Below, in pieces: positions 9,992 through 54,800 of a stretch of DNA of 61,509 nt (position 1 is the first letter of the stretch; each line of letters starts with the position of its first letter). The notes below the pieces were generated by a model, which was given only the letters and a program-made list of their open reading frames with translations, made no database searches and had not been told where the DNA came from. Origin of the DNA: Prasinococcaceae sp. CCMP 1430 (taxonomy: Eukaryota > Prasinodermophyta > Palmophyllophyceae > Prasinococcales > Prasinococcaceae); the NCBI GenBank assembly GCA_013416795.1, contig RQSC01000028.1, positions 731,797 to 793,305 of the forward strand, read 5' to 3'. The position numbers and the translations under genes are program-made.

Positions 9992-10340
9992 CACTGCTCG
10001 GCGGTGGCCGTAGTCCCACGCACGCGCATCGCCGGGGAATTGTTCCCGCGGAGCGCCACGGCATTTGCGTGCGTGAGGAGGGATCGTGCGCCGGCGCGCG
10101 CAACAATGCCATCTCCCACGGAGTCATTGCCACCAGAGCCGGCGACGAGGCTGACACTTCGGACCGTCGCGCGGCGCCATCGCACCCATTGGCATGGCAC
10201 ATTTAGGGTTTAGCAGCCACGTCGAGTGTCGTAACGCCCCGGCCGTTACGTTGCTTTGCTTTCGCGCAGATTCCGACATTGTGCCGACAGCTCAGCAGCG
10301 CCTCGTCAGGGTCCGGTGACAGCTCAGCGGCGCCCCCCGC

Positions 10341-10505
10341 CGGCATCTCGTCGCAGATTCTGCGCGCGCGGCGCTCTCCGCTCGGTCCACGGTCACCACA
10401 CCATGGTGCCGCCATCGCCAGGTGAGTACCAGTCCGTTCGGATCCCCCGCCATCACAGCGGCAACTCTCGCCCCACCCGTCGGCATCTCGTTGCAGATTC
10501 TGCGT
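10341..10505 (+). repeat. Pair of 25-bp direct repeats 140 bp apart
   Basis: CGGCATCTCGTCGCAGATTC plus TGCG at 10341 recurs at 10481 with one change (C to T). A nearby GACAGCTCAGC also occurs twice (near 10287 and 10317). This looks like a decayed tandem duplication. Confidence 0.7.
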
Positions 10506-11005
10506 TGCGCCGGATCGCGTTGGATTTGACCTACCGTTACTTTCGACGCAGGTCGTTAGGATTTGGGCGTGCGGTGCCATGGGAGGGCATCCGTCGCGCG
10601 CGCCCGTGCCGCCGCGCGTGCGCGATTCCCCGAGCGCGCGCCGCAAGCGCGCGCTGGCCGCGGACGGGTCCCACCGGCGCAGCGGCGCGCCCGGCGCGGA
10701 GGGAAAACGCGTGCGCATACGTGGCGCGCTCCTGCTATCTTCTGCGCGGCACGCTGCGAGAGCAGTGAGGCAGCGTCGTCGCGGCTGCCCGTGGAGGGGG
10801 GGGGGGTGAGTGGGGGGGGCGGGGGCTCCGTCGCCGGGGGGCGTGTGGGAGGCGTGTGGGTGGCGTGTGGGCGGCGGTGCCACACCGAGCCCTGGCGACA
10901 CACCAACCGCGCTTATCACTTCGACACGGCACCAGCGAAGGCTCTGCCACCGATCCGAGTCCTGCTGCCAGTGCGGGCCGTGCGTTATATCGACGGCGTG
11001 CGACC

Positions 11006-13682: not shown

Positions 13683-14154
13683 GTCGTGCCAGGCTTCCAT
13701 CGCCGGCGCGCGTGAGCGCGAGCGCGCCGCCACCGCCACCGCTGCTGCGCGCCGACACCCCAAGCTCTGCGCCGTGCAGGCCGTCGCCGGCGGTAAGGTG
13801 AGACGCAAGGCACGTCGCAGCAGCGGACCACACGAATTCCTCTATGAAAGGGCGCGGCAGTCCCACTGCGGCGCTCCCCACTTGGTACAGTGCACGTGGC
13901 GCCGCGGTGTGTGTGCCGCGTCGTGCCTGTAAAGATGATGGCCATGTGCTTCGAGTCTCTTCGTGGCAGCACAGGTCGTATTACCGTACGAGCACATGCG
14001 CACGCGCCTTCGCACGCGCACTCTGCAGTCTATGCAGAGCTGTGCATATCGTAAAGATGCCGGCCACGTGCTCACTTCGAGGCAGCATCGGTCGTCTGTA
14101 CGAGCACGCGCGTACACACGCGCAGCTTGGCATGCACATGCGCACACGGGCTGG
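13683..14154. other. Convergent intergenic region with a diverged duplication
   Basis: It lies between the 3' ends of the 11006 gene (+) and the glycosyltransferase (-). GTAAAGATG.. at 13929 and 14051 begins a diverged ~75-base direct repeat (shared TCGT.., CGTACGAGCAC.., ACGCGC). No coding signal is seen. Confidence 0.5.
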
Positions 14155-16291: not shown

Positions 16292-17180
16292 GTGTGTGCG
16301 TGTGTGCATGCGCGCGCGGGTGCGTGCGTGTGCGTGCGCTTGCTCGCGCACAATGTGTGTGTATGCGCGCGCGTGCGCGTTGCGCGCGCTCGCGCGCTCG
16401 CGCAGGCGCGCGCTCGCGCCTGCGCCCGCGCCTGTGTGGCGCGCCTGTGTGGCGCGTAGGCGCACCCGCGCTCCCTCCCTCCTCTCCCTCTCTCTCTCAT
16501 GCGCACGCGCGCGCGCACTCGGGGAACGGCCGCAGCCCCGTGCTCGGATGACGCTCCCGACCTCAGGTTTCGCAAAACCCCAAACCGCATTGGTTTTTTT
16601 TGCAGATTTGCTGCTCCGTAATTCAATCCGTGATACATCACATAAAGAGGAAGGTTAACGTCAATGCTGTGTTTCATGTGCGAAAATATGATCGGAACGA
16701 TGTAGGGTTTAGAGACCTCAGATGCTGGATTCTCAGCATCAAAACGCCTTCGTTCGTGCGATCGAGCGTCGGGTGGTCTCCCGTGGGTAAAGTATACGAA
16801 TGTTAACAAATGTGATACCGTGGGTGGGGCGGGCTCGCGTCGCGAGCGAGCGAGCGAGCGAGCGGGCGCAGGTGCGCCGCACACGCACGCCGCGCGGCGC
16901 CACACGCGCTCGCGCGCGCGTACGCGCGCACACACGCACACAGAGGCAGAAGTGCACGCACGCACGCACGCACGCACGCACGCGCAGACGCACACACACA
17001 CTCACACCAGTGCACACACGCACGCACGCACGCACGCACGCACGCGCAGACGCACACACACACTCACGCACACGCACACACACACGCACGCGCACGCACG
17101 TACGCATCCAACTCCACTGGTGCGCAGTGCACACACACACACACGCGCGCGCGCCCGCGCGCACGTGCGCGCGCGCGTCG
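16292..17180. other. Divergent intergenic region, AT-richer core, CGCA repeats
   Basis: It lies between the glycosyltransferase (-) and PGP (+). 16550-16810 is clearly less GC-rich than its flanks and contains GATGCTG/CAGCATC hairpin arms directly before TCAAAACGC (16739-16747), plus TAGGGTTTAG (16703-16712). 16951-17050 is ACGC tandem repeat. No gene is seen. Confidence 0.5.
16718..16747 (+). promoter_or_regulatory. TCAAAACGC element (copy 2) next to a 7-bp hairpin
   Basis: GGATTCTCAGCATCAAAACG keeps the core and GGAT spacing of the copies at 3739 and 28916. It is again in the shared 5' region of two divergent genes. Function is inferred from recurrence only. Confidence 0.35.
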
Positions 17181-17417
17181 ATGGCGTCGACGACGGCGCT
17201 GCGCTCCGCGCGCGCGGCCTCGACGCCCGCGGCGCTGGCGTCGCTGGTGCGCTCCGCGGACGCCTTCCTGTTCGACTGCGACGGCGTGCTGTACCACGGC
17301 GCCGAGGCCGAGCCGGGCGCGGCCGCGGCGCTCGCAGCGCTGCGCGCCGCGGGGAAGAAGGTGCTCTTCGTCACAAACTCGGCAAGCAGGTGTGTGTGTG
17401 TGTGTGTGCGTGTGTGC

Positions 17418-17450
<33 letters not shown>

Positions 17451-18485
17451 CGCGTGCGCGCACGCGTGTGTGTACTCGTTTGTGCGCACGCGAGCGCGCA
17501 TACACAAGCGCACACATTGAGCCAGCGCGCCTACTCGCTCGTACGCGCGCGCGCACACGCACGAGCGCACACTGTCACACGCGGACACACCGACACACGC
17601 TGACGACATTCGCACGCGCGCGCGCGCGCACCAGGCACCGCCGCGTGATGGCCGCCAAGCTGGAGGGCCTCGGCCTGGGCGCCGTGGACGGCGGCGCGCC
17701 GCTGAGCGCGGCGGAGCTGCAGCCGTTCTGCCACACCGCCGCGCGCGCCGCCGCGGCGCACCTCGCGTCCGCGGGCGTCGCCAGGTGTGTGTGCGTGCGT
17801 GTGTGTTTGTGTGAGTAAGTGTGTGTGTGTGTGTGAGTGTGTGTGTGTGTGAGTAAGTGCGTGTGTGTGTGTGTGTGCACGCACGCGGCCTCGCCGCTGA
17901 CACGCCACACCACGCGCATCGCCAGGGCCTTCGTTGTGGGCTCGGCGGGCCTCGCCGAGGAGCTCAGAGAGGCGGGGGTGGAGCCTATTGGAGGGCCGAG
18001 CTTCGAGGCGCTCGCGCCGGTGCGTTTGTTGATGTGTGCTCGTGTGTGCGTGTGTGTGTATGTGTGTGTGTGTGTGTGTGTGTTTGTGTGCGCGCGCGCG
18101 TGTGCGTGCGTGCGAGTATGTGTGTGTGTATGTGTGTTTGTATGTGCATGCCTCCGCCGTCGCTGACGAGCCGCCATGTGCCCTCGCGCCCCCGCGCAGG
18201 ACGGCTCGCTGCTGAGCGCGCACGCCGCGCACACGTGCGAGCTCGAGGAGGGCGTGGGCGCGGTGGTGGTGGGCTACGACGAGCACGCCACCTACGCCAA
18301 GCTCGCCAAGGTGAGCGATGCCAGCGGTGCTCCAACGCTGCACGCACATACACACACACACACACACTCACACATACACACACACACACACACACCATCG
18401 TTATCATCACACACACGCGCGCGCGCACGCACACGCCCGCGTATTCGTACCATCGCTGACGCCCCCCGCCTCGCGTGCGTGGCGG

Positions 18486-18524
<39 letters not shown>

Positions 18525-18844
18525 GCGCCGCGCAGGCGTGCCTCTTCCTGCGCGAGCGCGAGGGCGTGCGCTTCGTGGCCACCAACCTCGACGCGTGCGC
18601 CAAGTACTCCAACGGGCGCATGTGCCCCGGCGCGGGCATGCTCGTCGCAGCGGTCGCCAAGGGCTCCGGCGTGGAGCCCGTCGTGTGCGGCAAGCCCGAC
18701 CAGGTGTGGGCGCGCGGGAGCGCGTCGTGCGCGCGCGCGTGTGTGTGCTTGTGTGTGTGTCACAAATAGAAATCGTGTGCTGCCACGCGTACGTGCTCAC
18801 ACACACATCGCCTCTCACGCCTCTCACGCGTTTGGACACCCACT

Positions 18845-18900
<56 letters not shown>

Positions 18901-18901
18901 N

Positions 18902-18998
<97 letters not shown>

Positions 18999-19312
18999 GC
19001 ACGCACACACATCATATCATCATCGTCATCACCACCACCATCGTCGCCGCACGCCCTCTCGCCCAGGTGCTCATGCGAGCCGTGCTGGCGGAGCACGGCC
19101 TCGACGCGTCGCGCACCGTCATGGTGGGCGACCGGCTGGACACCGACATGGCCTTCGGCAACGCGGGCGGGCTGCGCACGCTGCTTGTGCTGAGCGGCGT
19201 CACGGCCGAGGCGACGCCCGACGCGGACGTGCCCGAGGGCTGCGCGCCCGCGTACGTGGCGGACAGCGTGGCGGCGCTCGAGGGCGCCGCGAGGGTGGCG
19301 GGGGGGAACTGA
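17181..19312 (+). CDS. Phosphoglycolate phosphatase / HAD-family phosphatase
   Basis: Six exons: 17181-17389, 17635-17784, 17926-18019, 18200-18310, 18536-18703 and 19067-19312 give 325 aa. HAD motifs are in order: [14 protein letters not shown] (nucleophile and acid Asp), [15 protein letters not shown] (Lys) and [13 protein letters not shown] (metal Asp). The C2-cap region with [23 protein letters not shown] is that of the eukaryotic phosphoglycolate/4-nitrophenyl phosphatase group. It removes 2-phosphoglycolate made by RuBisCO oxygenation, or acts as a related metabolite-repair phosphatase. The first ~25 residues are only weakly transit-like. The introns are extreme (TG)n/(CA)n; four of five contain CTGAC 20-60 bases before the acceptor. 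Confidence 0.88.
18849..18990 (+). repeat. (CA)n microsatellite with an N inside PGP intron 5
   Basis: Roughly 70 CA units are broken by a single N at 18901. The N probably marks an unresolved repeat length. The 362-base intron is the only PGP intron without CTGAC. Confidence 0.95.
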
Positions 19313-19717
19313 GCGCGCGCGGGCCGTGTGCGCGCGCGCGCGCGCGCGCGTGTGGTCTGCGTGTACGCGCCCGTGTGCGTTGCGGACGGTGGCGCCGCGC
19401 GCGCGGCGGCGGCGGCGGCGGCGGCGGCGGGCTGGACGGACACGCACACGCACACACGTCTGCGCTCGCGCACGCACACACGCTCGCGCGCGCACTCCTA
19501 ATCTTTTGATTCGGTTGGACTCGACGCGCATGCGCGGGTGCACGCACGGGACGAGCATGCATGCATACACACACACACACACGCTTCCGCGCACATTTGC
19601 AAACTCGCACACACGCACACACGGCCAGACGCACACAAAAGCACACACATACACACACGCCCGCGCGCGCAGTGGCCCGGGGTGGTCCTGCGCGAGCCTC
19701 GGCCACTTTACGCCGCC
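19313..19717. other. Convergent intergenic region, GCG and CA repeats
   Basis: It lies between the 3' ends of PGP (+) and IspD (-). It contains a (GGC)n run near 19405-19430 and CA-rich stretches; nothing coding. Confidence 0.5.
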
Positions 19718-19839
19718 TCAGGCCTCCACGGCGGCCGCGGCCGCCCGCGCGTCGAGCAGCTTCTCGGCGATGGCGATGTCCTCCGGCGTGGTAACCTGGG
19801 CGCACCCACCCGTGTCAGCGGTGCATTCACAAGCACACG

Positions 19840-19891
<52 letters not shown>

Positions 19892-20191
19892 CACAGCAGA
19901 CACATGCACACCTTGATGTTCTCGTACGACCCCTTGGTAATCTTGACGGGCTCCCCGAGCGCCTCGACGATGGAGACGTCGTCGGTGACCTCGAGTCCCT
20001 CGGCCTCGACGAGCTCATACCCGCGGGCGAGCAGCTCGGGGCGCACCACCTGCGGCGTTTGCACCTCCCACAGGCGCGCGCGCTCCAGCGTGCGCTCCAC
20101 CATCAGGTCGGCGCCCACCTGCGGGTGGGGGCGCGCCGAGAGGCAGGGGCGCGGAAGCACGTCAGCGCGCGTGTGTGTGTGTGTATGTGTG

Positions 20192-29848: not shown

Positions 29849-31516
29849 ATGGCGGGAGACGAGGCGTGGCGCGCGCGCCACGCGGGCCTGCTCACGCCCG
29901 TTGCGGCGGCGCGCGCGAGCCCGCGATTGCTCTCGCTCTTGCCAATGCTCGCCGACCAGCGCACCGTGTGGCTCGCGGGCGGGACCCCGCCGGGCGAAGC
30001 CTTTCCGCTCGCGTCGCTGCGCGTCACGACGGTGGACGGTGCGTGCGACGTGCACGTCGGCGCGGCGGCGGGCGGACACGCCGACAAGAACGACGAGGCC
30101 TACAAGATGCAGCAGTACCAGATGGTCTTCAGAGGCTATCCGCCGCTGTTCGACTGGGTGTGCGCGCACGTGCGCCTGCTGCACGCGCCGCCCGAGGGAG
30201 GCGGCGCCGTCGGCCCCGCGCCCCTCGAGGAACGCGTGCTGCTCACGTGCGGCAATTCGGACGCGCTCGACAAGGTGCTCGTGGCGCTGCTTGGCCCCGG
30301 CGATGTGCTGCTCGTCGAGGAGAGCAACTTCCTCACGTCGATAAGCGCGCTCCGCCCTCATCAGGCGCGCGGCGTGACCGTCGCGCCCGTACGCACGCAC
30401 TGCGCCCGCGCCGTGCGCGACGCGTGCGCCGCGTTGCGCGCGCGCGGCCTGCGCCCGAAGGTCTACTACGTCATCCCCACGGCGCACAACCCCACCGGCG
30501 TGTCGGCGTCGGCGGATGCGCGCCGCGCAATATATGCGGCCGCGTGCGACGAGGACCTGCTGCTGCTGGAGGACGACCCGTACTTGTACGCAGCGTTCGG
30601 AAAGACGGGCGGCAAGTGGCTGAAAGGCGCCGACGCCGCGGCCGCGGGCGAGAGCGCAAACGCTGTGAACGAGGCGGCGATGCCAGGTTTGTACGGCCTG
30701 GCGTCGCACGCCTTTACGACGTCCACGCCCAACGCGGCGCTGCCGCCGAGCTACCTGTCCATGGACGTCGAGGAGCGCGTCGTGCGCGTGGACACTTTCT
30801 CAAAATTTATGGCGCCGGGGCTGCGCGCTGGCTGGGTGACGTGCTGCCACGCGCTGCGGCAGAGCCTGATGTACCACACGCAGCAGTCATCGCAGGGGGT
30901 GTGCAGCGTGAGCTCGGTCATCCTGGCCAACGTGCTCCAGCAGTGGGGGAACGACGGCCTCGACGCGCACCGTGCGGGCGCGCACCCGCGCGCCAGCACC
31001 TCTGCGCCTACGTGCCCGCCCGCGCGCGCGCGTGCACATGTTGCAGCGCCGTACTGACGCGGCGCGCGGCCTCACTCACTGGCGACCTCACGGACAGTGC
31101 GGCGGCTCCAGGCGGGTTACGCGTCCAAGTGCGCGCTGCTGCTGTCGCTTCTCGAGGAACACTGCGGCGAGCTCGCACGCGCCGAAGTGCCCGACGGCGG
31201 CATGTTCGCGTGGATCAAGGTCTCGTGGGCGGTGGGAGTCGTCGACACCGCCGAGCTCATCGACGACCTGGTGGCAGCGCGCGTGGCGCTCGTGCCTGGG
31301 CGCTTCTTCTCGCCGGACGACGCGCCCAGTCAGCACCTGCGCGCGTGCTTCGCCACAGCTTCGCCCGCAGAGATTGCGCTGGGCATGGAGCGGCTGGGCA
31401 TGGCGCTCAAGAAGCGCGCGCGCGCGGGCGGGGCGCATCGCCCCAGCCTTACCCGCGTCCGCGGCGCGGTGCATCAAAACAAGCGCGTGCGCACACAGCA
31501 CGCACTCGCCATCTGA
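29849..31516 (+). CDS. Class-I PLP aminotransferase (aromatic / 2-aminoadipate type)
   Basis: Exons 29849-30971 and 31098-31516 (513 aa; intron GTGCGG..GGACAG with ACTGACG). LLTCGNSDALDKVL (PLP-phosphate loop), IPTAHNPTG (Asn), LLLEDDPYLY (Asp/Tyr) and VRVDTFSKFMAPGLRAGWV (Schiff-base Lys and Arg) are the fold-type I class-I set. The order and PGG..PFP-like N terminus (LAGGTPPGEAFPL) resemble Aro8/AADAT aromatic and aminoadipate aminotransferases. It likely transfers amino groups between Phe/Tyr/Trp/aminoadipate and 2-oxoglutarate. The C terminus after GMALKKRARAGG is a basic tail of unknown use. The mitochondrial fragment ends only ~115 bases upstream, so the natural promoter may be displaced. 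Confidence 0.85.
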
Positions 31517-31946
31517 GTGAGCCCCGACGGAGCCCGAGCGGCCCCACAGGCCATGCATCCGCGCAGGCACGGGCGACCAACCGTGACGTGTCCTGTTTAT
31601 CACAGCCTGTAGTACTACTGTAAGTTACAGCCTTGTATGTAGCGCACGTGCCTGGGCTCAAAGTAGTAGCCTACCGGAGCATGCAGGGTCCGTCTCGCGG
31701 CTACAATCCGAGCTGCGGAGAGGCGAGCTCAACGGCTGCACCGACACGAACGCCGAGGCAAGCTCCGCCGTCGATTCAGGCCCTGCGTTGGCTTGTGCCT
31801 CTCCACAAGGTCGACCATGCCGCCTGCCTCGAGCTGGACCTCGATGCCCGCGTCACGGTAGCGGTAGCGCAACGATCTTGTGGCGAGCGTGTTTGAGGTA
31901 AAAAAAGGGTTTGCAGTGTTTGCCGCCGCCACGCCATGATGCCACC
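31517..31946. other. Intergenic, nothing recognised
   Basis: The stretch between aminotransferase and U-box gene (both +) is of mixed composition. TGTAGTACTACTGTAAGTTACA near 31607 is a weak palindrome. No domain or RNA gene is seen. Confidence 0.4.
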
Positions 31947-33333
31947 ATGGCAGCTGCCCGCGCCACACGTGCACACGTGCACGCCCTGGGCGGCCGCTGG
32001 CGCGAGGGGGCACCGGCGGGGGCGACGGCGGAGGGCGCGGCGGAGGGCGAGGGAGCGCCGCGGGTCCTCCCGCTCGCTTCTGCGGCCGCGCGGGCGGGCG
32101 GGCGTGCCCGCATGCACAATGCATTCAGCGCGACGCCGTGCGCGCGCGCGCGCGGGGCCAAGCGCGCGCGGGAGGAGGACGCGGCCTCCACCCCGGTCGC
32201 GGCGGGGACGGAGGCGGCCTCCTCCGGCGTGGAGCTGAGCCCGTCGCTGTCGAAGGCGATCACCTGCCCGATCAGCCTCACGCTCTTCCATGACCCCGTG
32301 GTCCTGGCGGGGAGCGGGATCACTTACAGCCGACTGGAGATAACGCGCTGGCTGCGGAAGCACAACACGTGCCCCGTCAGCAATCGCAAGCTCAACGGCG
32401 CGAGTGACCGCCTGCTGGTGCCCAACATCGCGCTGCGCGCGTTGGCCGAGGAAGAGTTCATTCGGCGCGACCCGCCGGAGCTTGGAGGCGCCGCCGGCAA
32501 GGAGGGCGCGGCGGAGGCGCTCGCGGCGCTGCGCCACCCGCGCGCCAGCGCAGCGACGTGCGAGCGCGCGTGGCAGCTGCTGGCGAACGACAGCTTCGGA
32601 GCGGCCGAGATGGGCGCTCTCTCCACCATTGCCGCGGCGCTGCGTACGCTCGGCGCGGCGGCTGCCGACACGGCCAAGGGCGATGGTGAGAGTGCCAAGG
32701 CGGCCGCCGCCCGCGTAACAGAGGGGCGCGAGCGGCACCTGCGCGCAACGTGGCGCGCGCAGCGGATCGTCCGCAAGATCTTCGGCAAGGGCAGCGCCAA
32801 GCACAACGTTGTGTTCGACGTAGACGCCTCTGTGGTCGTCGAGAGTGGCCTGGTGGGAGCGCTGTGCGACGCGCTGGGTGAACACACCGAGATGTCCACC
32901 GACGTGCTGAACCAGGCAGGCGACGCCACCCTGGAAGGCGCAGACAAGCGGGCGCAGGTCAAGGGGGGCATGTATACGTGCGTCGCGATGTGGGCGGATT
33001 CGGCGCTGTACTACTTGATGTGGGCGGACGAAATCGTGCACGAGGCGTTGCGGCGCGGTATCGTCGCCAGGCTCGAGCAGTGGCCGTTGGCCTGCCACGG
33101 CCGCGCGGCTTTCGGGCTGAGCAAGGCGTCCCTGGGGCGAGGCGCGCTGCTCGCGAGTGCGCCGTTCAACGCAGCTCTGCGCGAGAATCCGCAGCGGCCG
33201 GAGGGCGTTGACTCGGACATCGATCGCACGCGGCGGAGGCTGGAGCACAAGGGGCCTGCTAAGGTGTGGAAGGTCGGGGCGTACAACCGGCGCGGTGACG
33301 CGCTCGCTGGCTTCCGCGACGAATATGACCCCC

Positions 33334-33365
<32 letters not shown>

Positions 33366-33539
33366 AGGTACGATGCCGAGGACGACGGAAGGGTCATGTC
33401 AGACGCCTACACCACCGACGACTACAACGACTCGGACGACGCGATGAGCTCAAGCGACGACGACGGCGACTACTCTGACGACGAGCCCCGCGCGCACGAG
33501 TGGCCGGGGTGGCTGACGGCCGGACCTAGTCATCATTGA
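31947..33539 (+). CDS. U-box domain protein (putative E3 ubiquitin ligase)
   Basis: A single exon, 530 aa. The start is the ATG in CCACCATGG, a strong eukaryotic context. Residues ~105-175 read ITCPISLTLFHDPVVLAGSG..YSRLEITRWL..CPVSNRKL..LLVPNIALRALAEE, a complete U-box. The N terminus is Ala/Gly-rich and basic with a short KRAREED motif. The middle is helical without recognisable Armadillo repeats (QRIVRKIFGKGSAKHN..). The C terminus is strongly acidic (DEDEDEDEDE..DDYNDSDDAMSSSDDD). By family it passes ubiquitin from an E2 to substrates bound elsewhere in the protein; substrate unknown. Confidence 0.8.
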
Positions 33540-34296
33540 GCGCTTTGCTTTGGGGCGGCGGCGGCGGAGGAGGAGGAGGAGGCGGAGGCGGAGGAGGACT
33601 CGGCGGAGGAGGACTTGGCGGAGGAGGAGGGCTCGGTCCTCGTCCGCGGCAGCGTCGGCGGAATTGCGTGCGAAAATACCTCGAAAATGCAGCGGCTCGA
33701 GATGAAAATGAAAGTTAAAAATGTTTTTAAAAAAAAAAGAAATGCGAAGGGGAAAAAAGGAGGGCGCCGGCGCGAGGGCTGCGCCGCGCTGCCCCCCGCG
33801 CGCCACACGCCGCGTGTGCGCGCGCCCGACGTGCGCGGCATGCGCGTGCGGGCGGGAGGGGCGGGAGGGGCCGGCAACTCGTGTGCGCGTGCGTGCGTGC
33901 GCGTGTGCGTGCAGGGGGTAGGCGGGACCGCCGTGCGCCCCCGCGCGCGGCGTGTGCCGCGAGCGCGGCTCCCGCGCCCGTCCGGATCGCGATGCCGGGA
34001 CGGACGGCGCCAGATGAGGTCAAGGTTTGGGGTTGTAGATAATAGGGTCCATATCAGAGGTGCTGCGTGCAATGGAATGGCCCACCATCTCCGGCCGGGT
34101 GGGCTGGGGCTGGCGTGTGCCTCGCGCGGACGGTCGTCCACACCCCCCACGCTCACATCCCCCTCCCCGTCGGGGGCCCCCTCTCGCCCCCACCGCCGGG
34201 GCGGACGCAGCGCGCGCGAGGGCCCGCAGCGGCCCGACCTTTTTGCGCTCGCGGCGGCCGCACTGCGCCGCGCTGCGAGCGCTCCTGCGGTCACCC
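33540..34296. other. Intergenic with (GGA/GGC)n purine tract
   Basis: A GGAGGC-type tract at 33551-33640, an A-run near 33727-33740, then CG-rich DNA with GTGCGT runs and no convincing coding exon. Confidence 0.5.
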
Positions 34297-34400
34297 TTGC
34301 AGAAAAGGAATCCTTATTCTAAAGAGAGACATACTGTGAATACCGTGGTTGGGTTCGCTTATGCATTGGAGACATCCGTGCGGGGTTCCGCTCGTTCCCC
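34297..34400 (+). rRNA. Mitochondrial-like LSU rRNA fragment (domain II)
   Basis: ACTGTGAATACCGTGG followed by TTGGAGACATCCGTGCGGGG matches the E. coli LSU block ACTGCGAATACCGG..GGGAGACACACGGCGGG. It is an AT-richer island of about 100 bases between GC-rich flanks, immediately upstream of the cyclophilin gene. It is the third mitochondrial-like fragment in the window. Confidence 0.6.
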
Positions 34401-34614
34401 GCGGCGCGCGCTAAATCGGGCGGCACGGGGGGGCGCGGCACAGGCGCGGCACAGGGGCGCGCCCGAGGGCGGGCGCGCGCAAGAGAGCGGCAGCAGCCGT
34501 CGGCGGCGGCTGCCGGGGACAGGAGGGGCGGCGTCGGGGCGGCGTTGGGGGAGGGAGGAGAGGAGAGGACGCTGGGCGCCGCCCGCGGCAGGCGTGGGCG
34601 CGTAGTTCTCCGCC

Positions 34615-36410
34615 ATGCCGAACCCACGCGTGTTTCTCGACGTGGCCATAGGGGACAACGCGCCGCGGCGCGTGACCGCCGAGCTCTACGCCCATGCGGT
34701 GCCTCGCACAGCGGAGAACTTCCGGTGCCTGTGCACGGGCGAGCGCGGCGGCGCGCTGCGCTACAAGGGCAGCGCCTTCCACCGCATCATCCCTGGTGCG
34801 TGGCGCCGCGCGCGCGGGCGCGGGGGTGCGCCGCGAGCGTCTTGCGCGCCTGCGCCTCGCCGCGGAGCGCCGCGCGCGCGCTTCCGGCGGCTGCTCCGCC
34901 GCGTCTGCTGCGCGGCTGCTGACGCTGGCCGCACACGCCCCTCCCCCGCCGCTTTTCCCGCCCGCGATCGCGCCGCCGCAGGCTTCATGGCGCAGGGCGG
35001 TGACTTCACGCGCGGCGACGGCACAGGCGGCGAGTCCATCTACGGCGAGCGCTTCGCCGACGAGAGCTTCGCACTGAAGCACGACGCCCCGGGCATCCTG
35101 TCCATGGCCAACGCTGGGCCCGACACCAACGGCTCGCAGTTCTTCATGTGCACCGAGGCCACGCCCTGGCTCGATGGCAAGCACGTCGTATTCGGCAAGG
35201 TAGAGGCGCCCTCGATGGCCGTATTGCGCGCCATTGAGGGCGTTGGCAGCGCGGGCGGCAAGCCGCGTGAGCGCGTGGTGATCGTGGATTGCGGTGAGCT
35301 CGGCGAGGGGGAGGGCATCGTAGCTGAGGCTGCGCCGGCCATCCTCGGCGCCAAGATCGAGCGCGCGACTCGCGTCGACAAGACGCTGCTGCCGCGCGCA
35401 TTCGGCGGGACTCGCAAGCGCAACAAACCGGCGGGGAGCAATCGCGCGTTCGTCGCGTCGAGCCTGCTCTCCTTCGACGAGGAAGCAGATGCCGATGGCG
35501 GTGCCGGCACAGGAGGTATCGCCGCCGGCGTCGCGCGCGCGCCTGAGCCGGCCGCTGCCGCCGGTGGCGCTCGTCGGCAGGCCGAACGTGGGCATCTGCG
35601 GGCGCGCGTGGCGGCGGCGACGGTGACGACGCGCGGGAGGCCGCTGCGGTGGGCGCCTCGGCCGGCGAGGGCGCGGACGGTGCCCGAGATGGCGGCGATG
35701 ACCTGGCCGACGCACCACCGAAGGAGCTCACAGCGCAGGAGCGCAAGCTCTTTGAGCTGCGAATGCGCATGAATCAGGCGCGCAAGGGCAACCGCGCGGC
35801 CGCGGCCGCTGAGCGCAAGCGCGAGGCGATGGGTGCGCGCGCCGAGCGGCTCGAGGCGCTCGCAGCGGAGCGCGAGGAGGCAGAGGAGAAGGCGGACGAC
35901 CGCGGCGACGAAAAAGGTGGCGCGCGTCGCGCAGGTCACATGGACCAGACCGCAGAGGATGCGCACCGCGGGTACGAGAAGGAGCGTGAGAAGAAGCGCC
36001 GACGCGAGGAGGGCCCCGCGGCCGGCTGGCTCCAGCTCAACCCCAAGATCGCCTACAGCTCGTACAACAAGCGCGTTGAGAAGAGCCCCTACATGAGCCA
36101 AGAAGAGTACGAGCAGGTCAAGGCGGCGGGCGGTGTCGATGCGCACGGTGCGGGTGGCGTCGAGGCGGGCCTGTCGTACGGCGGTGCCGGCGCGCCCTCG
36201 CAACGCGCGCTCGACCGCATGACCAAGGAGCTCGACGCGCGCAAGAGCAAGAATGTGTCGCGCCGCCGCAAGTTCTACGATGAGAAGGATGTCGATTCCA
36301 TCAACCCGAAGAACGAGGTGCGGAACAGGCTTCTCGAAAAGCAGTACGGCAAGTACAGCGCCGCCATCAAGGCCGACCTCGAGCGAGGTACGGCACTGCC
36401 GGATGTGTGA
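34615..36410 (+). CDS. Cyclophilin-SYF2 fusion (spliceosomal)
   Basis: Exons 34615-34795, 34982-35515 and 35581-36410 give 514 aa. Residues ~1-165 are a cyclophilin PPIase: [40 protein letters not shown] and VFGKV. A linker with [12 protein letters not shown] follows. From residue ~285 it is SYF2: [18 protein letters not shown], then [17 protein letters not shown], then [20 protein letters not shown] and [17 protein letters not shown]. The two parts are in different frames joined by a 65-base intron GTATCG..GGCAG that restores phase. The SYF2 frame has no ATG before its conserved MRMNQ core, and the cyclophilin frame alone would overrun SYF2 until 35772. Both families work in the spliceosome (SYF2 in the NTC/Prp19-associated set). 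Two overlapping genes are the alternative. Confidence 0.78.
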
Positions 36411-36564
36411 GCGCGCCGCGAGCGCGTGCAGTCAGCCTGTCGGCGCACGGCAAGCTAGTCGTTGTCGGCGTGGTAATGGCGACTGGTCTCACTCGCGGCT
36501 TGCACAGGCTCGGAAGCGCGCGCGAACTGAGTTTGAAATTGCAGTATTATCCATGCGCCTTCGC

Positions 36565-39500
36565 CTAGAACCCATACGAGTAGTCGTATCCGCTCCACGA
36601 GCGGCGATTCGAGCCGTAGGCGCCACCGCCGTACGAGTTAGAGCGCGCGTACGACGAGCCGGCCGAGGACGCGCTGGCCGAGCGCTGGCGCGTGTACGCG
36701 CGCGAGTAGCCGCCGCCAGGGCCACGCGAGCCACCGCGTGAGCGCTCGCCTGGGAAAGAGCTGCTGCGGTTGGAGCCTCCAAAGGTGCCGTAGAGGTCGT
36801 CTAGGTCAGCCTCAGGATTCTTGAGCGCCTCGGTGGCGGCCTCGTGTGCTGCGCCCACCTTCGAAAAGAGCCGATTGGCATCCTCGCGTGCGAAGTCGAT
36901 GGCGGCGTCGCTCGCAGCGCCACCACTGCCGCGCACGAGCGCGGCAGCGGCTTTGTCTGGATGCAGCACCAGGGCCAGCTTGCGGTAGGCCTTCTTGACG
37001 TCCGCCGCGCCCGCCTCGCGCTTCCTGAGGCCCAGCCAAGCGAAGGGATCCGTTCGCCGGCGCGCGCGCCGCGCCTGGCGCAGCCGGTCGGACGCGCCGT
37101 CGCGCTCTGAGCGTGGCGCACCCGTGCGTTGGAGGATGGCGACCATTGCCTCGAGATCCGTGGCCTCGTCGTCCTCGCCGAGCTCAGCATGAATGGCCGC
37201 TCGGCGACTCCATGCCTTTGAGTACCAGCGGTCGAGCGCAAGGGCGCGCCCGCAATCGGCGGCCGCGATGGCACGCCGCCCGGAGGCGTGCGCCGCCGCG
37301 GCGCGGTTGCAGAAGCACGCCGCGCGCAGGCGCAGAGCAAAGCGCCCCGCCGTGGCGCCAGCTCCCGAGCCCTCGCCCTCGCTGGAGCCAAATTGAAGTG
37401 CTTCCGTGTAGAGCACTTCGGCCTCGTCGTGTTTGCCATTCGAGAATGCAGCGTTGCCTTTAATGCGCCTGCTGTTGATCTCCACCAGCTCCGCAAGCTT
37501 CGAGCTCGCGGCGATGAGGTCGGCGCGCTCGAGCGCGTAGACTGCGGCGCCGACGCACGCGGAGGTGGCCTCGCCCGTGCCCTCCTCCCAGTCTCTGGGC
37601 GACAGCGAGTCAGAGGCAGCAATTGCATCAGCAAGCGCCTTCAGGCCGCCGTCGAGATCACCCAGGCCCAACCTGGCACATGCGCGCACACGCAGCTGCC
37701 ACGAGAGCTGTCGTGTCTCAGAGGGGAGGCGGCCATTGCGTCCCTTGCGCTCGAGCTCTGCGACCGTGTCCGCGCCCTCCGCCTCGGCGTCGGCGAAGCG
37801 CCCGACGGCAAGCAGAGATCGGGCGCGCATGCAGCGGAGCGCGCAGCATTCGGGGGCATCTGCTATCGCCACGTTCAGATCCTGAAGAGCGCCCTTGACG
37901 GCACCCTCGATACTGGCAACGTCGCTGACGTCGACGACAGGACCCGCCGCGGCGGCAGTCGCGCCCGCACTCTCCATGGCGGCGAGCGCCGAGCCCACCA
38001 TCGCCCGCACGGCGCGTGCACTGTCTCCGCCGCGCACCGCGGTATCTACGCCGTTTGCGTCCCCAGCCGCGCGCGCCTCCGCCTCGCAGCGTGCGAAGCG
38101 CGCAGCCGCATCAGCGGCGCGCCCTAGGCGCAGCGCACATGCTGCGGCGCGCTGCCTTGCGCGGCGGTAGCCAGCATCGAGCGCGAGCGCCTCCTCACAC
38201 GCCGCAAGCGCCTCGCGCGAGCGCCCGACCATCATGAGGGCCGCCGCGAAGTTGCCTCTCAGCACCGCGAGCTCCGAACTGGACGCGTTCCCTGCACCGC
38301 TTGAGGTGTCGCCTTTGCTAGCGAGCGCGGAGGCGTCCTCGTACGACGCAGCCGCCGCCTCGTACAGGCCCGCGTGAAATTGCCTGTCGGCAGAGGCCTT
38401 CATGTCACGCCACTGCGTGCCTGCGCCTCGAGGACCATAACCAAACGTCGGATATGGCGAGGGCTGGGCAGTGTGGCGCGTCCGCTCTTGCGCGTCCGAG
38501 CTGGCTGCCGCTGCCCTTCCCCCCTTCTTGGGCGACTTTTTGGACGCGTGTCTCGTCTTGCCGATAGACTTTGTGGCCCCGGACGACGGCGTCGGGGCAC
38601 TTGCGTGCCCTTGACGAACAGACACTCGCGCAGACTCGCCGACTGCCGCGCCGGAGACGCCCTTGCCAGGCTCAGGGGCTCTCGCATACGCGTGCTTGGC
38701 TGCAGCGGCCCCGAAATCTGTCATGTGCGTCCCGGCCCCGCGCGACTTCGACTGCCCTGGCGACGCCTCGGTGTGCGGACCAGCGCCAAACCTCGCACTG
38801 CTGCGCGCGCCTGGGGCGTCAGGTGCGCCGCGACGAACGCGTTCCCGGTGCGTTTTCATGGCATCGTGCCGCTTCTCCATCTCCGTCGTCACTCGCGTGG
38901 TCGCCGCAGTCACCTGCTCGTCTGGAAGCTCCCCAGCAAGACGCGCCCGCCGCATCGCCGCGCGGAGGCATGAGTGCAGCTCGAAGAGTTCGTCCTCGGA
39001 GAGCGTGCCCAGGTCGCCGCCGCCGGCGAGCGCCGCATCCGCCGCGCGCAGCGCCGCCGCGGCGCGCGCCGCAGCGCGCTCGCGCGCGGCAGCTGTGCTC
39101 GCTTCCACGTTGGGCATCGGGCTCGATGGTGGAGAGGGCTGCACACCGGGCACTGCTTCGTCGTGGCAAAACGTGAATTCAGCGGAGGTGGGCCCATCCT
39201 CATAGCTCCCATCGACAGCCATCGGAGAGCCCTCGCGGACGAAGCTCGACGACGACGATGCTCGCGCAGGCGGCTCGTACCCGTTTGCGTGGCTCTGCTG
39301 CTCCTGCGCGGTCAGGGAGCGTGGAGAGATGGGTCAGTTGGCTGAAAGCGCGCGTGAGATCGCGGCGCTCGAGCGCGCGCGCCGTTGGACCGGTCGCACC
39401 TTCACACGCCGTGCCTCGGCCGCGGCACGCAACCCCTGCAGCTCGGGCCCGAAGGGCGAGCTCTGACTGTTCGAATCACTACCGCGACCGCTGTCGGCGT

Positions 39501-40532
39501 TGCGCTCGCGCAGTACTCGCCTCGCCTCGCTTTTGCGTGCCGCCTTCGCTCTGGCCCTGCTGCTCCCACCACTACCGCCACCACTACCCGTGCCGCGCCT
39601 GCCAGCTCCTGGCGAAGCCTTTGAAGGAGACCTGTTCGCACCCGTGTCCGCTTCGGGAGCTGCGCCTGCGCTGAAGTGGAACGCCGGCCCGGTCGGCGCT
39701 GGCGTGGATTCGCCGGCTGCGAATCTGAACGCCGCGCGGGCGCTGGGACTCTCCCCTGCGCGCACGCCCTCGCTCGCGCCGGCACTTTCGTGTCCGCTCA
39801 CACCCGCGCCTTCCCGAGCGCGGAACTGGAACGCAGGTTCGTGGCGCGCCGCCGGCGACTCGCCCGCGCCGAACCTGAACGCGGGAGACGGTGGCATTCG
39901 CGGTTGCTGCTGCGGCACGGCTGGCGCTGACTGCTCCCGCTGCGGCATCCCTCCTTGGGGTGCGCGTTCACCCTGTGGAGCGCCCGGTGACCTCCCTGCA
40001 TGCCTTCGCGGCGGGAGGCGGCGCGAGGAGCCGGCCTTGCCTCTACTCGAGCCCACACTTCCGCTCGCGCCTCTGCGTGCGCTCTGCGGGGTCTTGGGCT
40101 TGGGCGACGCCGAGTGACGCGCGCCGGCGCCCCTCTGCCTCTGGGCGTCACCGCCGCTCACCGGGCTCGCAGCGTCTCCCCGCTCCTCGAAGTGCGCGTC
40201 GGCGCCGAACGTGAACGCCGCGGGTGGGGGGCGCGCGGGCGCGCGGGCCGGGCCACTCGCCGTCTCGGCGGCGCCGAAGACGAAGCTAAAAGGGGACGGG
40301 CCCTGGTCTGGCGACGCCCCCATGTGTCCGCCGCCAGCGCCATTGGCGGTGCCGGCAGCAGTGCCCCCCTGCGCGGCGCTTTGCTCCTGAAGCGCCACCT
40401 CGACGCGCAGCCGTTCCAAGTCTGTCGCGAGCGAGTCGCCATCGCTCGAGAGCGACGACACGTCCGAGCCTGCCCGCGCATGGCGCGAGCCGCCGCGCGC
40501 GCCAGGGCTCGCGCCGACGCCGCCGACGCCGC
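36565..40532 (-). CDS. TPR-DnaJ co-chaperone with N-terminal FG-like repeats (5' truncated)
   Basis: Exon 39303-36565 and exon 40532-39400, joined by a GTGCGA..GCGCAG intron with ACTGACCC, in phase. The upstream exon carries repeated AFxFGAG/FVFGA-type motifs (SFVFGAAETA, AFTFGADAHF, AFRFGAGES, AFHFSAGAA) separated by basic Ser/Pro linkers. The downstream exon has at least two TPR clusters (GLYEAAAASYEDA.., AALMMVGRSREALAACEEAL.., GNAAFSNGKHDEAEVLYTEAL..) and a J domain, DPFAWLGLRKREAGAADVKK, with VLHPDK (HPD motif), then a Gly/Ser/Arg tail. Plant TPR-DnaJ proteins have a similar layout. It stimulates Hsp70 ATPase through HPD and presents clients through TPRs. The 5' end is lost at N 40533. 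Confidence 0.8.
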
Positions 40533-49926: not shown

Positions 49927-50562
49927 TCGGCGACCTGCTCGCGTCGCGCTCGCGCGGCGAGCACGCGCTCGACCTCATCTTCGTCGCGTCGGTGCGTGAA
50001 GACGGCAGCGTTGCCACCGCAATGCCGTCCGACGCACACGCGGCCGAGCTCGAGTACCTGCTCGTCGACGGCGTCAACCCGGGCTCGGGGGAGGCCTTCG
50101 ACTGGGACGCATTCGAGGTGCGATGACGGGGCCCTGAGGGGGAGCCCATGCCGTCGCGCGCGCGCGCTCGCACACACACGTTGCGCGCGCTCGCGCACAC
50201 ACGTTGCGTGTCTGCGTGGCGGCGTGCATGGTGTGTGCGTGCGTGTGAGCGCGCGCGCGAACACGCACTGCAGCTGCGAACCTGGCGCGCCTGTGCGCAG
50301 CGCGCGTCGTTCCCTGCCGATCAGCAGCGTCGCAGGCGCTGACACACCACAGGCGCCGCCGGCCGCCGGGATGACGCGCACGGGCTGGCTGCTCGCGGGC
50401 GGCCTCGATCCGGACAACGTTCGTGCGGCGGTGTGCGCGGCCGCGCCGTCGGGCGTTGACGTCGCGAGTGGCACCGCGGACGCGTCTGGCGTCGCCAAGG
50501 ACCACGCCAAGGTGGCAGCGTTTGTGGCCAACGCGCGCATGGCGGCGACCGAGTGCTGCTAG
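49904..50562 (+). CDS. Phosphoribosylanthranilate isomerase, C-terminal half
   Basis: Exons 49904-50117 and 50353-50562 (donor GTGCGA; acceptor CCACAG with GCTGACAC). GDGARAALGDLL continues the HGDG strand of the N-terminal half. LIFVASVREDG and YLLVDGVNPGSGEAFDWDAF match the TrpF VDxxxxGGTG(xx)FDW region. GWLLAGGLDPDNVRAAV, then GVDVASGTADASGVAKD, is the phosphate-binding end of the barrel. Together with 41452-41850 it makes a complete TrpF of normal length. The ATG at 49896 is probably not a true start because half the barrel would be missing. Confidence 0.8.
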
Positions 50563-50838
50563 CAAGCGCGCCCGCGTGCCACGCTGTACCTATATGTTGT
50601 CTACGCACGTGTGGTGGCTCTCACGCCGACGCGCGTGCGTGTGGCTGCGCCCTCAGTGTAGCCTACACGCAGCGGCAGCCCCGACCCTGTGCACTCCGAG
50701 AGCACACTCCTATGTGTGCGCGTGTGTCCGCGCGCGGGCTAGCGCGCGAGCGAAACGGAGTGGTGTTCGTGACGTAGGCGCGCCCCCGCGGCGCCACACG
50801 CGGCCCCGCGCGCGCGCGTGCGCGCTGTAGGCACACTC
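50563..50838. other. Short intergenic region
   Basis: The gap between TrpF and the small conserved gene; GTGTGCGC-rich, nothing recognised. Confidence 0.4.
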
Positions 50839-51476
50839 ATGTCCGATAACAAGGCTGTCGATGGAGCGATTGTCGACAACCCCGCCCCCGCGGGCGACGA
50901 CTCCCCGCCGCTGCTCGGCCTGCCCCCGCCGCGCGCGCCCGCAGCCGGCGCCGGCGGGCGCGCAGGACAGTCACTCGACTTGTCGTCGGGCGAGGCCAGG
51001 GTGGAGCTCGCTCACCTCGGCCCTATGCTCCTCAATGACGATGGAAGGTACGCCGCGGAATTCCAGCGTCTGTGCTCGCCCGTGCGCCCGCGCGAGCGCG
51101 CCTGCGCTGGCGAGTGCACCCGCGCTCACCAGCAGCCGCCACCGCCCTCGCCGACAAACGCCCGCGTTCGCACCCGCGTGCACACACACATGCGCTCATG
51201 CGCACGCACACACGCGCACGCGCACACGTATGCACACGCGCGCCCGCATGCATGGGCGTTTACGCGCGTGCGCGAAGCGTGAGCCGCATTGCCAACTGGC
51301 AGCAGATGACCGCCAAGGAGCAGGAGGTTGCGGCGCGCAGGGTCGCTGAGCGCAACGAGCGCCGGCGCGCGCAGCTGCTCGCCGTTGAGGAGCGCGAGAA
51401 GCTCGCGCGCCAGGTGGACGAGGCCGCGCAGCTCGGCCTGGAGAGCATACAAAGATTCGCTGGCGACCTCGACTAG
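50839..51476 (+). CDS. Small conserved eukaryotic protein (plant Fb15-like), coiled coil
   Basis: Exons 50839-51047 and 51278-51476 (135 aa; donor GTACGC). A Pro/Ala-rich N terminus is followed by LSSGEARVELAHLGPMLLND, then DGSVSRIANWQQMTAKEQEV, a block shared with small plant proteins that read LGP(I/V)VVN(S/T)DGTLSRI(S/E)NW..MT..E. The join AG|C across the intron makes the conserved DGSVSRI, which fixes the splice site. A basic helix (RRVAERNERRRAQLLAVEER) then ends in QRFAGDLD. The function of the family is not established; no membrane segment or signal. Confidence 0.75.
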
Positions 51477-51870
51477 CGAGAGCCGCCCGCGCGGCCCACC
51501 GCTGGCCGCGCCCGCGAGGTCCTTTGCGGTCGCGCCGCCGGCGCTCGCGACCGCGATGGCCACGCACTGCTCAGCGCTGCCCCCACAGCGTCCTAGCTAG
51601 CTAGAGACAACGCTCTCCTCACTACAGTACCTCAAACACTCCGAGATATGCAATACAGTAGACACACACACGCACATACATCGTCTCCTCACCGTGCGTG
51701 GCGCCAGCCTGACGGTGTGTGTTGGGGGTGAGGAGGGGTGAGGAGGGGTGGGGGGGTGGGGGTAGGAGGGGGCCGCACGCCGCCCGCCCGCTCGCCTGCC
51801 CGCCCGCCCGTCGCCACGCCCGTCCGCGCGCTCCCACTAGTGCCTCCTCGTAATAATCAATGTCGTACAA
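51477..51870. other. Convergent intergenic region with G-rich repeat
   Basis: It lies between the small gene (+) and the giant gene (-). CTAGCTAGCTAGAG at 51594-51607 and a GGTGAGGAGGGGTGAGGAGG tandem near 51726-51770. No gene is seen. Confidence 0.5.
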
Positions 51871-54800
51871 TTACTGCGGCGCCGAGGTCCCGTTCCCTTT
51901 GGGCCGCATGGTGCCCTCCTCGCCCGTGGCGTCGCCCGCTGGCATGCCCTCGCGCTCGGCTGCATCGCCGTCAGCCTCGCCCGAGGGCGCGGCATCCGTG
52001 AGCTTGTTCTTCTGCGGGAGGCAGCAGCTCCAGCAAGTCCTGCACATCATGCCGCACAGCTTCCCCGACATGGAGAACACGATGCCCGACCACTCGCGCA
52101 TAATCTTGTAGAGGCGATAGACGACGTAGCACCCCAGGGCGGTGGAGCATGCCATGAGGAGCTTCTCCTGCCACGAGCCCTCCCAGTCGTACCCCAGGTT
52201 CTCCTGCATGACCACGCCGAAGAGGGAGACGAAGAGGTTGAGCTGAAAGGCCACCTCGAGTGTGTCGTCGTCGTCCTCGGCGTATGGCAGGAAGTACAGC
52301 TGGATGCATAGGCCGGCGATGGAAACGAAGAGCGCGTACATGGAGACGTACTCCGGCGCCGCGATCTCCACCAGGACGACGAACGACGTCTGCACCAGTC
52401 GGCGGCAAATCTCGTACACCTGCCAGTAGTAGTAGTCCTGCATTCGGCGGCAGCGACGGGGAGAGATTCCGAAGTGTCAGAAAGTGGGCACGCGCGAGCC
52501 CGCGGCCGCGGCTGCCGTGCTCCTACGCGCGTGCGCGCGGGAGGGCGGCATTGTTGAGGCAGATCCTAGTAGCGCGCACCCACTGGCGTCAACAACATGG
52601 GTGCGCAAGGCCGCGGTGGCGTACCTCCTGGTACTGCACCGTGAAAGGGTGCACGAACCTACTGAAGACGGCGTCTGAGTTGAGCTGCGTGACGGGCACC
52701 TCAATCTGGCTGCCGAAATTGCCCGTAATCGAATGAGTCAGGCAATGCACGCGGATGTACCCGTTCCCGTCTTCGACGACAGCCTGCGACAGCACGCGCC
52801 GCGTGGCGCGCTTGCGGCGGCGCTGGGCCTTCGCCTTGGCCTCGTCGTCCTCGAGCGCGTTGCGCACGTGGCGCATTAAGGTCTCCGCCGAGGACACCTT
52901 GCGGTTGAGCGAAGAGTGCGGATCCGGAGCCCAGTACTCGAACTTCTCGTCCTCCTCATCCGAGGACCCAGCGCTCGACTCGTCCTCGCTCTGCACACTT
53001 TCTTCGTCACTCTCGCCATTGTGCACGCCCGGCGCATCTGAGGTCGCCTTCGCTCGTTTTCCAAGGACCTCCAGCTCGCCCTCGTCGCCAGCATCGCCAT
53101 CAGTAGTCTCCGTGGTAGCCGTGTCCAGCGGGTGCGCCTCCATCGTCGGCGCCCCGCTGAAAGCATGGCTGACTCCATCGCCGCCGGCGAGCGGCACATC
53201 CGCGCCATCGCCCTCAGTGGCTTTGCGTCCATCGCCATCTCCTTCACTAGCCACCGCCGCGCCCACAGGCCGCTTCTGCAGCTCAGCGGTGTAGAATGGC
53301 TGCGCACCAGGGATGGGGACACCCCCGGCATCGCACGGCACGACCTTGCTCCTGTGGTGCAGGTAGCGCAGCGCTGCAAGGAGGAGTATCGGGTAGCCGA
53401 AGACATACACGACTATCACAACTCCCGAGAACGTGGCGTAGGGCACCCATTCGTCTCTGTAACACCGTACGCCGTGGTCCGACTGCAGCCAATACTCGTC
53501 GCCGTCCGTCTGCAGATTGTATTGCTTGCAGTTGAATGTCTCGAACATGGTGCTGGATATGGAGGGATGCAGCAAGTTCAGGAGGAAGATTGCGAAGACC
53601 AAAACAGTGGCCATAGTGGTGCGGATGCTCTCGATCTCATCCTTGGGCACCCCGCGCGCGGCGCCGTCGACGATCTGATTGAGCTTGCGGTATGTCACTA
53701 TGCAGGCCAGCGCGAACACGACGAAGGGAATGGATCCCTTGAACATGACGCTATCCCAGTAGCCCTGCGAGAAACCTTGGGCGAGGCAGCCCAGCTTCAT
53801 GACGGAGAACGGGTTGATGTCGAGCACGAGCAGCGGACCGTAGATGTGTTCGAGGAAGTTGGGAAAGCGCCCTGCCATCTGCTTCCACAGCTGGCCCAGC
53901 ACCTGGCAATTCTGGATGATGATCTGCCAAACAGCACCGACGTTCTCCATCGTGTCCTGCATGTCGTCGCGCAGGAACTCAAGGTTCTCGTGCAAGAAGG
54001 CAAGGCCACGGCCCGCCGCTTCGCGTACGCTCATGCCGGATTTCTGGAGCGAGCGGTACAACAGAGCGAATAGCATGAATATGAACAGCAGGATCACACC
54101 ACAAAGCCCGAAGAACCGCAAGTAGGTAATCGCATCGCTGTCGGGGCACTTCTCGCATTCGGTGCCGGCGTCGTTCTGGGTCCATCCATCCAAGCAGCGA
54201 TCGCACAGCACCACCGCGGGGTCGTAGCCCGTGGCGCAGAGGCGCGCATAGTCGACGTCGATATCCAGCCACGCATCAAAATCGCGGTCAGACTCGTTGG
54301 CCGTGGTGCAAGCGGGCTCGTCCGCGCACGCATAAATGCTGGCCATCAAACAGGTGCCATCGTCGCACTCGCTCGCCGAGGGCGGCAAGAAGAACCCCTG
54401 CGGCACGCTGAAGGGTGCCCCAGAGCCGCCGAAGCACGTGACAAGGTCGGCGTCGCACGGGACGCAGCCAGTGGCGTTACCTACCACGCTGTTGGGGAGG
54501 AACCCCTCCGGGCAGTGGACGTGCAGGCTGGCAGGGTAGCCAGCGATGAACTCGCTGCTACCGTCTGCACCCATGTTCTCCGCGGTTATATTCACCTCAA
54601 TGAGAGACGCCTGGTCGCTCTCCACCTCCATCGAGATGCGATGACTGGTGATTCCATTGTCGGTGTTTCTCTCGTACACGAAGCCCGTGATTGGCTCTCC
54701 CGACACGTCCTTCGCGCGAACCTTGAACAGGTCCTGAGCCGTTTGGCGCATGTTGCCGAATCGGTCGCGCGCGTCCACTTCGATTAAGTAATCCTTGTCG

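What the first reader, a model, noticed from the sequence alone, without database searches (positions are those of the whole stretch)
34615..36410. Cyclophilin fused to spliceosome factor SYF2
A complete cyclophilin and a complete SYF2 are joined by a 65-base intron (GTATCG..CAG) that exactly switches frame. The SYF2 frame has no start codon of its own before its conserved core, and the cyclophilin frame alone would run 250 bases into SYF2. Cyclophilins of the spliceosome and SYF2 work in the same machine, so a covalent tie could place the isomerase at the NTC. I know of no described protein with this layout. It is notable in a genome with unusual introns.
Basis: partly seen in the sequence, partly recalled or inferred. 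Interest (0 to 1): 0.8.

Follow-up and report, generated by a model that had tools for sequence, protein, structure and literature searches.

The report
Known cyclophilin–SYF2 fusion, doubtful intron
The gene joins a protein-folding enzyme (cyclophilin) to the splicing factor SYF2, a layout already described in ciliates, apicomplexan parasites and a green alga, so it is an ordinary member of a known family; only the short 'intron' said to join the two halves looks odd, and it probably is not an intron.

Summary
The window does encode a complete cyclophilin (Pfam Pro_isomerase, E 9.8e-43) and a complete SYF2 domain (E 1.8e-19) head to tail on one strand at 34615-36410; this is the only SYF2 match found in the 24.5-Mb assembly. 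The fusion is real but not new. Cyclophilin–SYF2 proteins were named as a subfamily in 2009 (PMC2713222) and noted again in 2011 (PMC3143110). A full-length homologue is chain M of PDB 8XI2, a Chlamydomonas step-II spliceosome. Of 256 proteins held, 140 carry both domains, all with cyclophilin first.

The claimed 65-base junction intron is poorly supported. A near-identical environmental protein (P0001) reads through the junction in one frame. The window differs from it by a deduced 17 extra bases. These lie in a tract matching the genome's own Der-type GTPase gene, 33 nt exactly, which supplies the supposed CAG acceptor. Frame-rescuing GT..AG pairs arise by chance in 247 of 300 shuffled linkers. 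The frame switch is most likely a private templated insertion or an assembly error. Verdict: new member of a known kind.

The parts
34615..34795 (+). exon 1: start and first part of the cyclophilin domain
   Evidence: ATG at 34615; translation and spliced alignment
34796..34981 (+). intron 1, 186 nt, GT..AG; its length is a multiple of three and it holds no stop in the cyclophilin frame
   Evidence: best of all GT..AG joins against a cyclophilin query; the other 10 rows of alignment A1 lack these 62 residues
34982..35298 (+). rest of the cyclophilin domain, up to VDCGEL
   Evidence: Pfam PF00160, residues 11-165 of the spliced protein, E 9.8e-43; recalled CypA active-site letters present as R57, F62, M63, Q65, A103, F115, W123, L124, H128
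35299..35717 (+). Ala/Gly/Asp-rich linker, about 120 residues if the 65 bases are removed
   Evidence: composition of residues 171-288; the linker of the homologue P0020 has low model confidence
   Evidence: coding in the near-identical P0001; chance control
35562..35594 (+). 33 nt identical to the Der-type GTPase gene at G000:C3:59989-60021 (minus strand); the wider match is 35550-35600
   Evidence: Pfam of the C3 frame
35572..35597 (+). 26 nt where P0001 codes 3 residues (9 nt), net +17, causing the frame switch; holds the supposed CAG acceptor (35578-35580)
   Evidence: deduced from tblastn of P0001 against the window and the flanking codons; P0001's own DNA was not seen
35718..36410 (+). 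SYF2 part, from [15 protein letters not shown] to [10 protein letters not shown] and the stop
   Evidence: Pfam PF08231, residues 354-506, E 1.8e-19; the only SYF2 match found in the assembly

Best explanation
The locus is one gene for a cyclophilin-SYF2 fusion protein of the known Cyp-SYF2 subfamily. The SYF2 part docks as a helical subunit of the NTC-related complex, and the N-terminal CypA-like isomerase hangs from it on a disordered linker of about 120 residues, close to proline-containing spliceosomal proteins. Shown: both domains, their order, the recalled active-site letters, one SYF2 match in the assembly, and the same layout in many algal and alveolate proteins. Inferred: binding to the spliceosome in this organism, and isomerase activity there. 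The junction is normally read straight through. The frame switch in this assembly comes from about 17 extra bases copied from, or mis-assembled with, the genome's Der-type GTPase gene.
For: Pfam on the spliced protein. One SYF2 match in the genome. 140 of 256 held proteins carry both domains, cyclophilin first in 140 of 140, including named Chlorella, Chlamydomonas, Coccomyxa, Trebouxia, Paramecium, Stylonychia and Babesia records. PDB 8XI2 chain M matches over both domains, E 2.4e-86; 8XI2 is the Chlamydomonas C* complex, whose paper lists Syf2 as an NTR protein. P0001 is identical to the window at 316 of 319 residues before the junction and 272 of 279 around and after it, in one continuous frame. 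The 33-nt exact match to the Der-type gene covers most of the discrepant bases. Chance control. Model of homologue P0020: confident cyclophilin, low-confidence 227-303, helical SYF2.
Against: No RNA from this organism was available. P0001's DNA could not be fetched, so the 9-versus-26-base difference is deduced from its protein, and only one of its cluster's 20 sequences was seen. P0001 may come from another strain and differ genuinely. The proposed intron does have GT..CAG ends and its removal does restore the frame. In the cyclophilin tree the window's domain does not fall with strong support among fused proteins.
Confidence: 0.82

Rival explanations
1. The 65-base stretch is a genuine intron, so the fusion mRNA is made by splicing across the junction.
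For: GT..CAG ends; removal restores the frame and keeps both domains.
Against: P0001 reads most of the same stretch as coding. The acceptor lies in the Der-like tract. It is shorter than the 4 introns fitted in cyclophilin genes of this genome, 116-248 nt, and than intron 1 at 186 nt. The pyrimidine fraction of the 30 bases before the last three is 0.57, against 0.70 for intron 1. Chance rescue is common.
Confidence: 0.15
2. The assembly is right and this strain carries a frameshifting allele: it makes a truncated cyclophilin and no full SYF2 from this copy. (This overlaps with the insertion branch of the best explanation.)
For: Without splicing the cyclophilin frame stops at 35772; no second SYF2 was found in the assembly.
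Against: SYF2 is found once here and its frame downstream is intact, so no decay is seen. A local assembly error explains the same data.
Confidence: 0.15
3. Two separate genes lie head to tail and SYF2 has its own 5' end inside the linker.
For: Named streptophyte and animal hits carry SYF2 alone.
Against: No Met in the SYF2 frame before the conserved helix; continuous ORF in P0001; both domains in one ORF in MMETSP proteins of other organisms.
Confidence: 0.03

Closest known systems
Cyps with SYF2 domain (PMC2713222, 2009), e.g. TgCyp66.2, BbCyp57.3
   Same: N-terminal Cyp_ABH-type cyclophilin, long poorly conserved linker, SYF2 near the C-terminus, as that paper describes them
   Different: Different genome; an intron early in the cyclophilin domain here, where that paper describes one large first exon in all its members but TgCyp66.2
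Tetrahymena CSY1 (EAR98967; PMC3143110, 2011)
   Same: Peptidyl-prolyl isomerase fused to SYF2
   Different: A ciliate; its sequence was not compared directly here
Chlamydomonas reinhardtii chain M of PDB 8XI2 (563 aa)
   Same: Matches over both domains, E 2.4e-86; part of a C* spliceosome model
   Different: 49 residues longer in all; its gene structure was not examined
Stand-alone SYF2 of plants and animals
   Same: SYF2 domain
   Different: No cyclophilin domain
CypA-like cyclophilins
   Same: Cyclophilin domain and recalled active-site letters
   Different: No SYF2

Membership tests
Cyclophilin-SYF2 subfamily (Cyps with SYF2) | Pfam Pro_isomerase domain at the N-terminus | tested here: met
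   residues 11-165, 146.6 bits, cut-off 21.7
Cyclophilin-SYF2 subfamily (Cyps with SYF2) | Pfam SYF2 domain at the C-terminus | tested here: met
   residues 354-506, 71 bits, cut-off 23.5
Cyclophilin-SYF2 subfamily (Cyps with SYF2) | both domains in one open frame | tested here: inconclusive
   met in P0001 (592 aa); in the window only if a 65-nt intron or a sequence error is allowed
Cyclophilin-SYF2 subfamily (Cyps with SYF2) | single common origin with other fused proteins | tested here: inconclusive
   free cyclophilin tree does not group the fused rows (the window row sits with a multi-cyclophilin protein, support 83), yet one clade of green, alveolate and window rows is not rejected, p-AU 0.505 (28 rows against 36, the 13 other fused rows left out of the test); the SYF2 tree leaves P0001 on a long branch of unsure place
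Active cyclophilin | CypA catalytic residues (positions recalled, not from a call) | tested here: met
   R57, F62, M63, Q65, A103, F115, W123, L124, H128 in the spliced protein, placed by motif
Active cyclophilin | isomerase activity | not testable with these tools
   needs protein
NTC-related spliceosome subunit | physical presence in the spliceosome | not testable with these tools
   reported only for the Chlamydomonas homologue

The most novel reading that the evidence does not exclude
An intron caught being born: a short tract templated from the Der-type GTPase gene broke the reading frame of the genome's only SYF2 gene and at the same time supplied a 3' splice site, so that 65 bases, mostly former coding sequence, are now spliced out and the frame is restored.
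Probability: 0.08. Interest if true: 0.6.

Novelty: new member of a known kind. Interest (0 to 1): 0.2.

Why it matters
It corrects the claim of a new architecture: the fusion occurs in named chlorophyte, ciliate and apicomplexan records, whereas the named streptophyte and animal SYF2 hits stand alone. Why an isomerase is tethered to SYF2 in those lineages is still open. The 8XI2 paper lists Syf2 (and, separately, the cyclophilin PPIL1), and its main text does not hold the words cyclophilin, PPIase, fusion or fused, so that structure is a ready place to look for the tethered isomerase. The junction is a caution against reading frame-restoring GT..AG pairs in GC-rich DNA as introns.

Tried and rejected
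Rejected: the exact frame switch as evidence of an intron (chance control). Rejected: a separate SYF2 gene. A scan of viral contigs for P0001 found no relative (the tool warns that records very near the window's genome may be left out). A search of the own genome for 18S rRNA was asked for four times and never answered. One search's shuffle control had an off-by-one in the SYF2 frame and is replaced. One search's fit of window intron 1 used a wrong right edge and is replaced. One search's cyclophilin tree lost all stand-alone rows through a length filter and held one mistranslated row; it is replaced.

Base rate of short ectopic matches. In window 30001-40000 (47 matches listed) the Der-like tract and one 35-nt exact match at 32106-32140 stood out by eye from cyclophilin paralogues, a simple repeat at 33547-33636, a diverged gene copy and some weaker short matches, among them a 33-nt 97% match at 33880-33912 in alternating-letter sequence and a 45-nt 89% match at 32727-32771. 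In 50001-60000 none of that kind was listed. The list for 10001-20000 was swamped by a dispersed repeat and cut.

Both trees used hand-picked rows: 78 of the 191 proteins with a SYF2 domain, 40 fused proteins, the window row, three own paralogues and every second stand-alone cyclophilin (33 of 65). The labels green and alveolate for rows without an organism name are my guess from similarity.

Full report
What is there. At 34615-36410 on the plus strand lie a cyclophilin and a SYF2 domain. Intron 1 (34796-34981, 186 nt) is the clear best GT..AG join against a cyclophilin query. Without removal of the 65 bases the cyclophilin frame ends at 35772, and the SYF2 frame has no Met before its conserved core. 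The assembly (24.5 Mb, 145 contigs) gave one SYF2 match and 25 cyclophilin-domain matches, some of them pieces of one gene.

The fusion is known. PMC2713222 (2009; passages and section 11 seen) defines 'Cyps with SYF2 domain' in apicomplexa, cyclophilin at the N-terminus and SYF2 near the C-terminus, and lists Tetrahymena, Paramecium and Ostreococcus tauri proteins of similar layout. PMC3143110 (2011; passages seen) lists Tetrahymena CSY1 as a cyclophilin/SYF2 fusion. PMC11357558 (2024 review; passages seen) notes SYF2-related regions in PfCyP81 and PvCyP65. These papers came from the first literature search; further searches on the fusion are.

It is in a solved spliceosome. The best of 155 solved matches (60 shown) is 8XI2 chain M, 563 aa, matching query residues 1-280 and 263-513. 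PMC11833078 (abstract, outline, passages and sections 18 and 23 seen) deposits 8XI2 as the Chlamydomonas C* complex and lists Syf2 among six NTR proteins, next to PPIL1. That chain M is the chain called Syf2 is my inference from its SYF2 match. The words cyclophilin, PPIase, fusion and fused do not occur in the main text. Whether the cyclophilin domain is visible in the maps was not checked.

How widespread. Three protein searches gave 256 distinct proteins. By my own profiles the first (31 hits) held 11 with both domains and 20 with SYF2 only; the second (3242 hits, best 120 listed, 115 of them new) 50 with both and 65 cyclophilin only; the third, from a probable ciliate member (113 hits, 110 new), 79 with both and 31 SYF2 only. 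In total 140 carry both, 51 SYF2 only, 65 cyclophilin only, and cyclophilin is first in 140 of 140. These numbers are not frequencies: the searches admit only proteins of 0.55 to 1.75 times the query's length, so short stand-alone SYF2 proteins are missed, and many of the 140 are near-copies. Named carriers include Trebouxia, Micractinium, Chlorella, Coccomyxa, Chlamydomonas, Haematococcus, Bryopsis, Prototheca, Paramecium, Stylonychia, Blepharisma and Babesia. Klebsormidium, land plants, Plasmodiophora, a mollusc and a mite appear with SYF2 alone.

How often it arose is unsettled. The free cyclophilin tree mixes fused and stand-alone rows, with the window row beside one domain of a multi-cyclophilin protein (support 83), but holding green, alveolate and window rows together is not rejected (p-AU 0.505; the 13 other fused rows were left out of that test). 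In the SYF2 tree, rooted at the midpoint for drawing only, the stand-alone streptophyte clade lies among fused proteins, and P0001 is on a long branch of unsure place.

The junction. P0001 (592 aa, an ENA contig of 5928 bases, cluster of 20 sequences of which I saw one) is almost the window's protein: 316 of 319 residues identical in the cyclophilin frame, intron 1 read through, and 272 of 279 in the SYF2 frame. It is one continuous frame. From the flanking codons, the window has 26 bases (35572-35597) where P0001 codes three residues, net +17, hence the frame switch; P0001's own DNA was not seen. Bases 35562-35594 are identical to the minus strand of contig C3 at 59989-60021, and the match extends with one mismatch and a 2-base gap over 35550-35600. 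On C3 they are the P-loop [12 protein letters not shown] of an open GTPase frame (MMR_HSR1, E 2e-24; the name Der/EngA is recalled from the motif). In the window they lie in the third frame, used by neither domain. The supposed acceptor CAG (35578-35580) is inside this tract, and both GTR..YAG pairs that mend the frame use it.

Controls on the intron. In the 423-base linker 20 GT..AG pairs restore the frame. Dinucleotide-shuffled linkers have at least one in 247 of 300 and codon-shuffled ones in 272 of 300. Four introns fitted in other cyclophilin genes of this genome are 248, 121, 116 and 146 nt with CAG ends; the fit allowed only GT or GC donors and AG acceptors, so it does not test for odd introns, and two further genes (L008, L013) were located but not resolved. 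The 65-base candidate is shorter and has a weaker pyrimidine run than intron 1 (0.57 against 0.70); its GC (0.83) is like intron 1's. None of this excludes an intron; together with P0001 it makes one unlikely.

How it most likely works. AlphaFold2 of the homologue P0020 on 36 fused proteins (mean pLDDT 73.9, pTM 0.41) gives a confident cyclophilin, a low-confidence stretch at about 227-303 and a helical SYF2; it says nothing firm on how the two are placed. The recalled CypA active-site letters are all present in the window protein. The simplest reading is a working isomerase tethered by a flexible linker to an NTR subunit, which raises its local concentration at the spliceosome; its substrate is unknown. 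Spliceosome membership is reported for the Chlamydomonas homologue only; activity is inferred.

Verdict. A real gene, a known architecture, and a probably misread junction. Interest is low for the fusion. The one loose end of some interest is whether the Der-derived bases are real.

Noticed in passing
window 35562-35594 and G000:C3:59989-60021: 33-nt exact match between the fusion's linker and the P-loop of a Der-type GTPase gene; templated insertion or assembly chimera.
   Followed up: partly
window 32106-32140 and G000:C11:209843-209877: A second short exact ectopic match, 35 nt, not low-complexity by eye, in an upstream frame that looks like a U-box gene by eye.
   Followed up: partly
window 51264-60000 and G000:C131:29005-37741: 8.7 kb listed at 100% identity on another contig: recent duplication or redundant assembly.
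   Followed up: no
window about 18846-19011: Dispersed repeat with many copies over many contigs at up to 98% identity; the 10-kb query around it gave 362 matches, and some places match it on one strand and window 17785-17877 or 18020-18146 on the other.
   Followed up: no
window 30001-30820 and G000:C44:16037-16880: A diverged copy at 88% identity.
   Followed up: no
window 18901, 20979, 40533: Three isolated N bases, so the consensus has unresolved positions.
   Followed up: no
window 35299-35515 (linker): [11 protein letters not shown] in the linker resembles a short acidic motif that I recall from other splicing proteins such as CWC27; from memory, not tested.
   Followed up: no
PDB 8XI2 chain M: The SYF2-bearing chain of the Chlamydomonas C* model is a full cyclophilin-SYF2 protein, while the paper's main text has none of the words cyclophilin, PPIase, fusion or fused.
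   Followed up: partly
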